NCBI RefSeq assembly: GCF_027596085.1
Contig: NC_072456.1
Coordinates: forward strand, 16,196,744 to 16,260,743
Direction of reading: 5' to 3'
DNA length: 64,000 bases
From: Anoplopoma fimbria
Lineage: Eukaryota > Chordata > Actinopteri > Perciformes > Anoplopomatidae
Position numbers and translations under genes: made by a program. Of the stretch, positions 28,918 through 31,900 are shown piece by piece. The notes under the pieces are model-generated. The model was not told the DNA's origin and ran no database searches. It saw only the letters and a list, made by a program, of their open reading frames with translations. The number at the start of each line of letters is the position of its first letter. The first letter of the stretch is position 1.

Positions 28918-31900
28918 CTGTAAAGGGGGAGAACGTCACAAAAAAACAGAAGTCAGAGAACGCTTTTCCCAGGGAGGAGCTTCATCTGCTAATCCAAACA
29001 AAGCTGCAGTGTTAATGTTAACCAGTTAAACCAGTTTGCTGACAATGAGATGTGATGCATCAACAGAACAGCCAATCCAAATCAGACTTGTTGGAGGCAG
29101 GGTGAGGAGGGGAGTATAAAAGACGCAGAGGTAAGAGGCAGAGCGGCAGAAGGGAGGAGGAAACAAGCATGTGAGCTGGCTGAAATCCGTGGAGACTAAC
29201 GCCACACCCTGAACCTGTTCAGACACATCCCATTACTCCAAAATAGGCCACCAGAGTGCTTTAAAACTCTTCACTGTCTTAACAAATGCTTCAACTGACA
29301 TTGATTTTTGTCTCTTAGTTTGCAAATCAAAAAATGGAATGAAAGATAAAATAAAATGAAAGGCAACTCAACTTAAAAAGATGGCGTTTATTCAATGTTC
29401 ACATGAAGATGAAGCTTAAATAAAAGCGACTAAAAGAATAAATTACACATTCATTCTGAGACATGTTGCCACCTCACAATAAAGACACACTCTTCCTTCA
29501 ACAAAACTCTAAATAATAACATTTAACATGCTTTACAAACAACAGGCAGTGTTTCCTCTAACCTGGTGGAAGAGTCTACACTGAAATGAAACACTAGCTC
29601 TGCTGATTCCACACAGAGAGATGAACGTATCAGTGAAATCAGCTGAAGTAGTGTTTTACTGGGATGGAAACACGACTCCTCCACTGGCTCAGGGGGAACA
29701 TGTGTAACAGACCGAACTAGATTTCTTGACCAAAACGAACTGAAATGTAAACGTTTACGAGTGATACACCACTTCGGTAACATTTGCCATCCCTTTGGCC
29801 GAGACGAAAGCAGCCCAGAGCTCACAGCCAAAGACGGGAAAACTAAACCATGACTGACGACAGCTTCAGTATCAACCATCAGGCATTACACACAAACATT
29901 TCTGGACTTGAATCCAAAGATATCCACCACCAAATAGCTGCCAAAGCAGAACCAAAGCCAAGAAATACCAACACCACTGTAGTGCAAAGAACTTATAGCA
30001 AAATGAAAACAGGACAGAACAAGAATAAGTGTGCAAAATATGTCCAACCACAAGACAGCTGATAGGTGACGAAAAGACAGTATCAACAGAGAGGCAGACA
30101 TATAGGACATCTGATTATTAGAGTTCAATATTCCTATACTAAAATACCGATATAAGTAGTACTTAAAAGGAATAGTCGGACATTTTGGAAAAGCATTTGG
30201 GAAATATGCGGATTCACTTTTTTTTTGCAGAGAGCAAGACGAGAAGAACACTTTCACTCTCATATCTGTCTTCTAAATACGAAGCTGCAGCCACCGCACC
30301 GAGCAAAGAAATAGTGCAGAGAACATTTTTATACTTTTCATCTTGCAAGGGTAATAACAACAATATGTAACATGTTAGTCAGTGAACAAAACAACTCAAG
30401 TAGTTGTGCAGCCTTACAAGAAAGTACTTCAAATCTACAGACTATAAACGCAGCCAAAAACATGTGAAACAAGAGTTGACTTGAAATGATTAGACGAGTT
30501 AACTAATCCTGACGCCCTCAGTTGACTGTTATCTAGCAGTCACTAATATCTGGACAAAAACAACCCACAGTTTTATCCAGTAGATTCATCAAATAAGAAC
30601 CGTTATACATTTATTTAGTGTTCTGTGACTTTCCTTTGCAGTTTGAACAATTGTATCTCTTAGCTTTATATTGCTCTTATTCTTGTCCTCCACCTCTCTC
30701 AGTACAATAATCTGCATCATTCATCTCTTCAATTTCTCCACTTGCTTTCTTGCTCTCTTTCCTGATCTTCCTGCCTCCCGTTTCTCTCATAGCTTTGCGA
30801 GTTTTACGACTCCTCCAGTTAGTCTGGTTAAAGTCGGCTGGCTCTTGTTGGCCTTCCTCCTCAGCGTCCATCTCGCTTTTTGCATCACTCGCCTCATTTC
30901 CATCCTCCTCTCCTTTGCTCCTCCCTCTGGAGAAAACAGCTGACAGCCGATGAGGTTTTAACCATTTCATAAATGTAAATTTGTCCTCGTTTTCTGCGAC
31001 AGATATTTCTCCTTCAGCTGCTTCCGTTTGGCCTTTGTCTGAAATTTCATTATTCTCCTCGCCCTCCCTGCTGCCTTTCCCTTCGACCTCAGATCCTGTT
31101 TCTTTCTCCAAAGATCTCTGTTCAGACCCTTCCTCTTTCACTTCAGTTTTCCGTTCATCCTCTACCTCTCGTCTTGAGAAAGCCTTGGAAAGACTAGCTG
31201 AGCCTGATACCTGGCAAAGTCCTTTCCTCTGTTGTCCTACTTCATCCAGACTTTCCATGCTGCTGCATGTTTCGCTGTCACTGCCCCTTCTGTCTCCTTT
31301 TGAAATGTTCTTCTTTAGTCTATCAATGTGAAGAACCTTTAATAAGCTGACTTTTTTCCTGTTTGGTTGACCATCTCCCCTTTCCCTACTCTTTTCACTC
31401 TCTTTCTCTTTCTCTTCCTCTTCATCGCCTTTCATATCTTCCTCCCTATCTGACTCCGCCCCACCTGTCATCTCCTGCTCTTCCTCGCTACTTTTACTCC
31501 TGGAGAAAGCTTTCACCAATTTTCCAGGAGCGAATGCTTGAAATATCCCCCCTCTTCCCTTTCTCTCTCCTGCTGTGTCACCCTTTTCCTCTTGCACGCT
31601 ACTCTTCACCCCTTGATCCACACCTTGCTCTAAGCCTCCCTCCCCTCCCTCCCCTCCCTCCCCCTCTCTCCTGTCTTTGGACAGGGCCCTTGCCAGCCTA
31701 CGAGGTTTGGAGATCTTCCAGTCTCTCCAGGTAACTGGAATGGAGGGGCGGTTGGATGGGGCTCTGGAGCCGTCCAGGCCTGCCACCAGCAGAGAGGGCT
31801 CACCTTCGCAGCGCTGGCACTTGTTCAGCTGGAAGGGGAAGATGATGTCTTTGTCGTTGCTGCAGAACTCGCACACGAAGCCCTTTGCCTGACACAGCTG

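What the first reader, a model, noticed from the sequence alone, without database searches (positions are those of the whole stretch)
30677..31897. Rubicon gene with an in-frame intronic terminal exon of 375 codons
Seen: the reading frame of the penultimate rubcn coding exon runs through its donor site for 375 codons, stops, and is followed 62 nt later by AATAAA, all inside the last intron. Known: in Rubicon the lost last exon supplies the final Cys/His zinc ligands of the Rab7-binding Rubicon homology domain. Inference: intronic polyadenylation would yield a Rubicon form with an incomplete zinc domain and a new charged tail, perhaps with altered Rab7 binding or autophagy control. I know of no description of such an isoform.
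Basis: partly seen in the sequence, partly recalled or inferred. Interest (0 to 1): 0.8.

Follow-up and report, generated by a model that had tools for sequence, protein, structure and literature searches.

The report
Conserved alternative tail of fish Rubicon
The last intron of a fish gene for the autophagy brake Rubicon holds an intact, evolutionarily conserved coding tail, so teleost fish very probably make a second Rubicon protein that lacks the end of its zinc domain and carries a new, repeat-containing tail.

Summary
On the minus strand the penultimate rubcn exon (31897-31804) runs in frame through its donor for 375 codons to TAA at 30679-30677, with AATAAA at 30615. 0 of 4000 dinucleotide shuffles were open; the other 20 rubcn donors read through for 1-89 codons. 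The tail is conserved coding sequence: 77 protein hits, best E 1.1e-130, and 16 full-length Rubicon proteins, 15 named as isoforms. A further search reached tarpon- and eel-like models. Conserved blocks are W..WK....RRLA.AL, EGEGGEE and NWR.RKTRKARR; a degenerate motif ending L.KAFS[KR] occurs five times. Best explanation: an alternative 3' terminal ("composite") exon made by intronic polyadenylation, giving 1260 instead of 930 residues. This form keeps RUN, the PI3K-binding domain, about 179 of 206 RH profile positions and the four published Rab7-contact positions; it loses five Cys and two His of the zinc region. Not shown: a transcript end, the protein, or any function. Automatic annotation already lists such isoforms; ten searches of an open-access library found no paper on them.

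The parts
32053..32206 (-). rubcn coding exon before the penultimate one
   Evidence: Splice signals and reading frame; joined to the next exon in 19 of 93 tail-bearing hits, all of them gene models
31804..31897 (-). Penultimate rubcn coding exon, shared by both forms
   Evidence: Matches Rubicon of PDB 6wcw
31802..31803 (-). 5' splice donor GT (AAG|GTGAGC), used for the canonical form and read through for the tail form
   Evidence: no other GTRAG in the rest of the tail, 3.3 expected, 3.5% of 1000 shuffles with none
30677..31804 (-). Intronic coding tail of 375 codons and its stop (31804 is the last exon base; the straddling codon is counted in the tail)
   Evidence: Open frame; homologues; alignment
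31670..31723 (-). Repeat 1, within conserved block A (WRDWKISKPRRLARALSKDR)
31493..31546 (-). Repeat 2 (IFQAFAPGKLVKAFSRSK)
31292..31345 (-). Repeat 3 (LLKVLHIDRLKKNISKGD)
31166..31219 (-). Repeat 4 (LCQVSGSASLSKAFSRRE)
30920..30973 (-). Repeat 5 (FMKWLKPHRLSAVFSRGR)
30758..30820 (-). Conserved block D (NWRSRKTRKAMRETGGRKIRK)
   Evidence: W361, R362, R367 invariant in 55 aligned rows
30610..30615 (-). AATAAA, proposed intronic polyadenylation signal
30554..30569 (-). GT-rich stretch, possible downstream element of the polyadenylation site
   Evidence: Read from sequence; role inferred
28781..28917 (-). Canonical last coding exon with the final Cys/His of the RH domain, absent from the tail form

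Best explanation
The 1.1-kb stretch is a genuine protein-coding alternative 3' terminal exon of rubcn, of the composite-terminal-exon type. When the donor at 31803 is not spliced and the pre-mRNA is cleaved behind AATAAA 30615, the message encodes a 1260-residue Rubicon instead of the canonical 930. Shown here: the frame is intact and conserved as protein across teleosts, and public gene models join it to upstream rubcn exons. Inferred: use of this polyadenylation site in this fish, and the effect. Most likely effect: the form keeps the RUN domain, the PI3K-binding domain and most of the Rubicon homology (RH) domain, including the four positions reported to touch Rab7. It lacks the last zinc ligands and instead carries a long, probably disordered, charged tail with five spaced basic motifs of the type L.KAFS[KR]. 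I think the two ends are alternatives for targeting: the zinc end supports docking on Rab7-positive late endosomes, and the tail weakens that and adds contacts of its own (acidic membrane or a partner, possibly switched by phosphorylation of the central Ser), while the part expected to hold Beclin 1-UVRAG-VPS34 is unchanged. Confidence by step: conserved coding tail 0.97; composite terminal exon by intronic polyadenylation 0.85; altered Rab7 or endosome targeting 0.5; tail as membrane- or partner-binding phospho-motif array 0.35. The number below is for the isoform and its origin.
For: Open frame beyond chance. 77 homologues of the tail, among only the 7991 candidates scored; 16 full-length proteins with the tail, 15 named Rubicon isoforms. 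Blocks A and D both present in 68 of 77 and 16 of 16 hits; ten invariant columns in 55 rows. Repeated motif 246 times in 97 tails against a shuffle mean of 10.4, maximum 20. AATAAA 61 nt behind the stop and a GT-rich stretch. Conservation begins at the donor, no other GTRAG donor inside the tail. Canonical protein has RUN, PI3K-binding and RH domains; full-length tail forms match RH only at profile positions 1-179 of 206. The decayed copy at 12973-13230 lost four nearly invariant residues that the tail kept.
Against: No RNA evidence was at hand. All 19 of 93 hits with the upstream splice junction are gene models, none an unnamed read-assembly contig. The donor AAG|GTGAGC is close to consensus, so it should normally be spliced. 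In the last 69 residues the window tail gained 6 amino-acid changes against 8 in the dead copy (1 undecided), so this end evolves fast except at a few sites. The search can only find intact frames. Four models splice from the tail into the canonical last exon instead of ending. Of the five additional models that bear tail sequence in the search from P0093, none has both end blocks by my patterns. In-frame conservation of Gly-Glu behind the donor is partly forced by the splice consensus.
Confidence: 0.82

Rival explanations
1. The tail is a coding extension of the penultimate exon that is spliced, from a donor near its end, to the canonical last exon. The product would be a Rubicon with a large insertion inside the last zinc region rather than a new C-terminus.
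For: Four models read from the tail into the last exon: P0092 (name starts Hypomes-) and P0095 (Albula) in frame, P0080 (Dissostichus) and P0098 (Synaphobranchus) out of frame by my reading.
Against: In the window the tail has no further GTRAG donor. 21 of 93 hits end in a similar GGGQE-type C-terminus, and 12 of the 16 full-length proteins are X2/X3 models of which P0092 alone rejoins.
Confidence: 0.08
2. Only unspliced pre-mRNA or genomic DNA: the frame is open and was picked up by annotation pipelines, but no stable message or protein uses it.
For: No splice-joined read-assembly contig among the hits; strong donor; no RNA data tested.
Against: Without use as protein, a 300-400 codon frame with conserved ends would not persist from Megalops-like to percomorph fish. 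The decayed copy in the same genome shows what happens without use.
Confidence: 0.07
3. A nested gene or captured mobile sequence in the intron that merely lies in frame with rubcn.
For: Repeats within the tail; two further fragments in the genome.
Against: Conservation starts directly behind the donor, and the first Met of the tail is residue 112, after the most conserved block. The only other matches reported in the genome are two fragments next to tandemly duplicated neighbouring genes. No Pfam family for the tail; no solved structure at E up to 1 beyond Rubicon for the profile.
Confidence: 0.03

Closest known systems
Composite-terminal-exon intronic polyadenylation isoforms (PMC5928244, passages read)
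   Same: Donor not recognised, sequence from donor to an intronic cleavage site included, AAUAAA present; loss of the C-terminal part of the protein
   Different: The new end here is 375 codons, longer than expected by chance, and conserved as protein across teleosts with internal motifs
Canonical Rubicon (RUBCN)
   Same: RUN, PI3K-binding and most of the RH domain
   Different: Final 5 Cys and 2 His replaced by the tail; about 27 of 206 RH profile positions missing
Human RUBCN frameshift allele A875fs of Salih ataxia (PMC7249383, passages read)
   Same: Rubicon with an altered C-terminus; truncated Rubicon is reported there to lose co-localisation with Rab7
   Different: A disease mutation that starts about 38 residues earlier by my numbering and so also removes Lys887; the fish tail is natural and conserved
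RUBCN exon 14 skipping in human cells (PMC9117662, passages read)
   Same: Alternative RNA form of Rubicon linked to autophagy
   Different: Internal exon, another mechanism, human
MARCKS-type basic Phe/Ser effector segments (recalled, not tested)
   Same: Basic stretches with F-S-basic residues that could bind acidic membrane or calmodulin and be switched by kinases
   Different: No homology found; several spaced copies with acidic linkers; no binding data

Membership tests
Composite-terminal-exon intronic polyadenylation isoform | Coding sequence continues through the 5' splice site into the intron | tested here: met
   375 open codons, conserved
Composite-terminal-exon intronic polyadenylation isoform | Polyadenylation signal in the intron behind the stop | tested here: met
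   AATAAA 61 nt behind TAA in this genome only; not testable in other fish, DNA not at hand
Composite-terminal-exon intronic polyadenylation isoform | Transcripts that end at the intronic site | not testable with these tools
   No RNA data; gene models only
Rubicon (RUBCN) isoform | RUN and PI3K-binding domains | tested here: met
   Canonical assembled protein and three full-length tail proteins; both lie upstream of the junction
Rubicon (RUBCN) isoform | Complete RH domain with all zinc ligands | tested here: not met
   RH profile 1-179 of 206 in tail forms against 1-205 in the canonical window protein; 5 Cys and 2 His lost. It is a form of the gene with an incomplete domain
Rubicon (RUBCN) isoform | Rab7-contact positions | tested here: met
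   N821, M822, T825, K887 of human map to N, L, T, K upstream of the junction; binding itself not tested
MARCKS-like phospho-switched membrane segments | Binding to acidic lipids or calmodulin, released by phosphorylation | not tested
   Only motif resemblance, recalled; central Ser kept in 29-43 of 55 rows per repeat

The most novel reading that the evidence does not exclude
Crown teleosts have kept a second form of Rubicon in which intronic polyadenylation replaces the zinc end that supports Rab7 docking by an array of phosphorylatable basic FS motifs. It would separate inhibition of the Beclin 1-UVRAG-VPS34 complex from late-endosome docking and place it under kinase control. The motif array itself would be an undescribed repeat family.
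Probability: 0.3. Interest if true: 0.82.

Novelty: new variant of a known kind. Interest (0 to 1): 0.62.

Why it matters
[quoted passage not shown] A natural form with a cut zinc domain and a conserved new tail would be a ready-made tool to separate the effect on the VPS34 complex from Rab7 docking. It also means that work on fish rubcn may be mixing two proteins with different ends. In addition it would be a case where an intronic polyadenylation product is kept as protein over very long times, and not only as a truncation.

Tried and rejected
Paralogue control: I wanted read-through lengths at the matching donor of other RH-domain genes in this genome; the search for PF13901 did not complete in six tries, so this control is missing.

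Retrocopy as origin of the fragment at 12973-13230: rejected. The match ends 14 nt before the AATAAA, no poly(A) tract follows, and the fragment lies beside tandem duplicates of neighbouring genes.

Structure: AlphaFold2 on the 55-sequence alignment gave mean pLDDT 46 and two short helices, 68-73 and 185-188, both in conserved stretches; I did not search folds with such a weak model. Amphipathicity is high for repeats 1 and 3 only; the tail maximum, 0.777, is just below the 95th percentile of shuffle maxima, 0.782, so it proves nothing by itself.

Distant relatives outside Rubicon: no Pfam family for the tail; in the PDB only 6wcw and one weak, charge-rich match to DEK (E 0.033), which disappears with the profile.

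dN/dS: not possible, DNA of other fish was not at hand. The only DNA pair (window against decayed copy) has 7, 8 and 7 differences at codon positions 1, 2, 3 and 5 synonymous against 15 amino-acid or stop changes in 70 codons.

First exon assembly was out of frame because of one border at 41670-41246; it was split in two. That small intron stays uncertain and does not touch the finding.

The DNA search in the plasmid collection was only a side check: no match.

Papers: 10 searches. Rubicon with intronic polyadenylation: 0 papers; Rubicon with fish and alternative last exon: 1 paper, where the terms are a reference and a legend. Only open-access PMC papers are held, and for most listings I saw titles and abstract starts. 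The Rubicon-Rab7 structure paper and the RH-domain paper are not held; their content is known here through the review PMC8102471 only.

Full report
WHAT IS THERE. The window is from a genome of 652 Mb, a fish by its genes. On its minus strand lies rubcn: from an ATG at 48492, 21 coding exons to 31804 assemble to 885 residues without a stop, and the canonical last exon (start 28917, stop 28783-28781) completes a protein of 930 residues (borders set by hand). It matches RUN, the Rubicon PI3K-binding domain and RH at profile positions 1-205 of 206. The penultimate coding exon 31897-31804 ends in AAG|GTGAGC. Its frame continues for 375 codons to TAA at 30679-30677, and AATAAA follows at 30615, with a GT-rich stretch about 41 nt further on.

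IS IT MORE THAN CHANCE. The DNA is 70% purine, which thins out stop codons, so I shuffled it keeping dinucleotides: 4000 shuffles had on average 15.8 in-frame stops, never fewer than 5. The same measure at the other 20 rubcn donors gives 1-89 codons.

IS IT CODING. The tail was compared with 5.8 billion proteins: 77 matches at E up to 0.01 among the 7991 candidates that were scored, the best 1.1e-130 with 66% identity over the whole tail. Because that search is limited by length, I joined the window's exons to a 990-residue query and scored residues 600-990, the tail plus the end of the exon: 16 full-length proteins, of which 12 are named Rubicon isoform X2 or X3, 3 are named isoform 2-T2 or 3-T3, and one is a hypothetical protein of Dissostichus mawsoni. 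The cut-off names begin Plectro-, Elegino-, Amphipr-, Phyllop-, Kryptol-, Vanacam- (two), Hippoca- (two), Syngn-, Menid-, Synch-, Cyp-, Hypomes- and Me-. The last, P0093, is 94% identical to Megalops atlanticus P0107, so I take it to be a tarpon. A third search with residues 808-1230 of P0093 gave 267 hits, 120 listed. Of the 104 new ones, 95 contain the canonical zinc signature C.AC[YF]H, so they matched mainly through the shared exon; 9 do not. Tail sequence is seen in P0094 (name begins An-, nearest to the eel Synaphobranchus, 72%), P0095 (Albula), P0096 (Ar-), P0097 (Sc-) and, briefly, P0098 (Synaphobranchus); P0103 (Neol-) breaks off after EGEPSLLVAGL. That An-, Ar- and Sc- are Anguilla, Arapaima and Scleropages is my guess. 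If so, the tail is as old as crown teleosts. Whether zebrafish, gar or bowfin have it I could not tell: only canonical forms of Carassius, gar and Amia were seen in the capped list.

CONSERVATION. In 55 aligned sequences (window and 54 of the 77 hits; the other 23, mostly partial or close duplicates, were left out) ten columns are invariant: W57, R66, L68, L72, G82, G84, G85, W361, R362, R367, all in the tail (numbering from exon residue 1, tail from 32). The tail averages 59% majority residue per column against 82% in the exon part, which is lowered by rows that start late. Both end blocks are present in 68 of 77 hits and in 16 of 16; of the five deep ones (P0094-P0098) 2 have block A, 4 the GEGGE block, 1 block D by my patterns and none both end blocks. 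A C-terminus of the GGGQE type recurs in 21 of 93. The Gly-Glu directly behind the donor is partly forced by the splice consensus; the rest is not. A search like this finds only intact frames, so broken ones would be missed; some hits are cut short (for example P0030 and P0043 lack block D).

REPEATS. The tail contains five spaced copies of a degenerate motif: DWKISKPRRLARALSK, IFQAFAPGKLVKAFSR, LLKVLHIDRLKKNISK, LCQVSGSASLSKAFSR, FMKWLKPHRLSAVFSR. A pattern that I wrote after seeing them, L..x[FLIVW][ST][KRWQ], hits 246 times in 97 tails (window and 96 hits), against 10.4 on average in residue shuffles, maximum 20 of 200; per tail 0 to 5 hits, 3 tails with none. The rows are related, so this shows that the motif is repeated and kept, not that it arose many times. 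The central Ser is kept in 36, 29, 43, 38 and 43 of 55 rows for repeats 1-5. AlphaFold2 has low confidence everywhere, with short helices only in repeats 1 and 3. I read the tail as disordered, acidic, with basic short motifs.

A NATURAL CONTROL. The genome search reported two further, decayed pieces of the tail, one at 12973-13230 of the window and one about 4 kb outside it. They sit beside tandemly duplicated plus-strand genes that look like 5-HT3-type receptor genes (named from translated frames, recalled), whose duplications seem to have carried the rubcn edge along. The copy in the window is 90.3% identical in DNA. It has a stop in place of K365 and lost T366, A369 and G375, all nearly invariant in other fish, and the window tail kept all four (the window is itself one of the 55 rows). 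Against this, the window tail gained 6 amino-acid changes in the same 69 residues, compared with 8 in the dead copy and 1 undecided, judged on the 13 closest rows. So constraint on this end is confined to a few sites.

TRANSCRIPTS. No RNA can be searched here. Of 93 hits, 19 contain the splice junction to an upstream exon, all of them gene models (3 UniRef and the 16); 24 have other sequence upstream, most of it looking like translated intron, as genomic DNA would give; and 50 start behind the junction. NCBI models of alternative isoforms usually rest on RNA alignments (recalled), and the same alternative end was modelled in many species, so transcripts are likely; this is inference. The contig length listed for the tail form P0078 and for canonical P0135 and P0140 of Plectropomus is the same, so one gene probably gives both ends. 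Four models (P0080, P0092, P0095, P0098) splice from the tail to the canonical last exon, two in frame and two out of frame by my reading; an inserted form is possible but weakly supported.

CONSEQUENCE FOR THE PROTEIN. The review PMC8102471 (passages) names Asn821, Met822, Thr825 and Lys887 of human Rubicon as Rab7 contacts. With chain position plus 695 all four letters fall right on 6wcw_A (the offset is mine), and the point that corresponds to the fish exon junction is then behind Glu913. All four positions are upstream of it and read N, L, T, K in the window. Lost are five Cys and two His of the fish sequence and 27 of 206 RH profile positions. A human allele altered from 875 on is reported to lose Rab7 co-localisation (PMC7249383, passages), but it also loses Lys887. 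Hence I expect reduced, not necessarily abolished, Rab7 docking.

COMPARISON. Composite terminal exons are a known class: in one human atlas 1648 of 2675 assembled intronic-polyadenylation isoforms are of this type (PMC5928244, passages). What differs here is the length and long conservation of the new end and its motif array. No paper on this isoform was found in the ten searches listed under Tried and rejected; the library holds open-access papers only.

VERDICT. A real, conserved alternative C-terminus of Rubicon in teleosts, most likely made by intronic polyadenylation; already present in automatic annotation, apparently not studied; function inferred only.

Noticed in passing
window 29392: A second AATAAA in the last rubcn intron on the minus strand, which could give a longer 3' UTR for the same tail form.
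   Followed up: no
window 12973-13230 (-) and C8:16192739-16192858 outside the window: Two decayed fragments of the rubcn tail, beside tandem duplicates of neighbouring genes.
   Followed up: partly
window about 1-25500 (+): Tandem array of genes that look like 5-HT3-type receptor genes, with 80-97% identical blocks between copies; named from translated frames, recalled.
   Followed up: partly
window 56210-56659 (-): A frame that resembles the TSC22 leucine-zipper region (recalled).
   Followed up: no
P0092, P0095 (protein models): Gene models in which the extended penultimate exon splices in frame to the canonical last exon, giving a Rubicon with an insertion inside its last zinc region.
   Followed up: no
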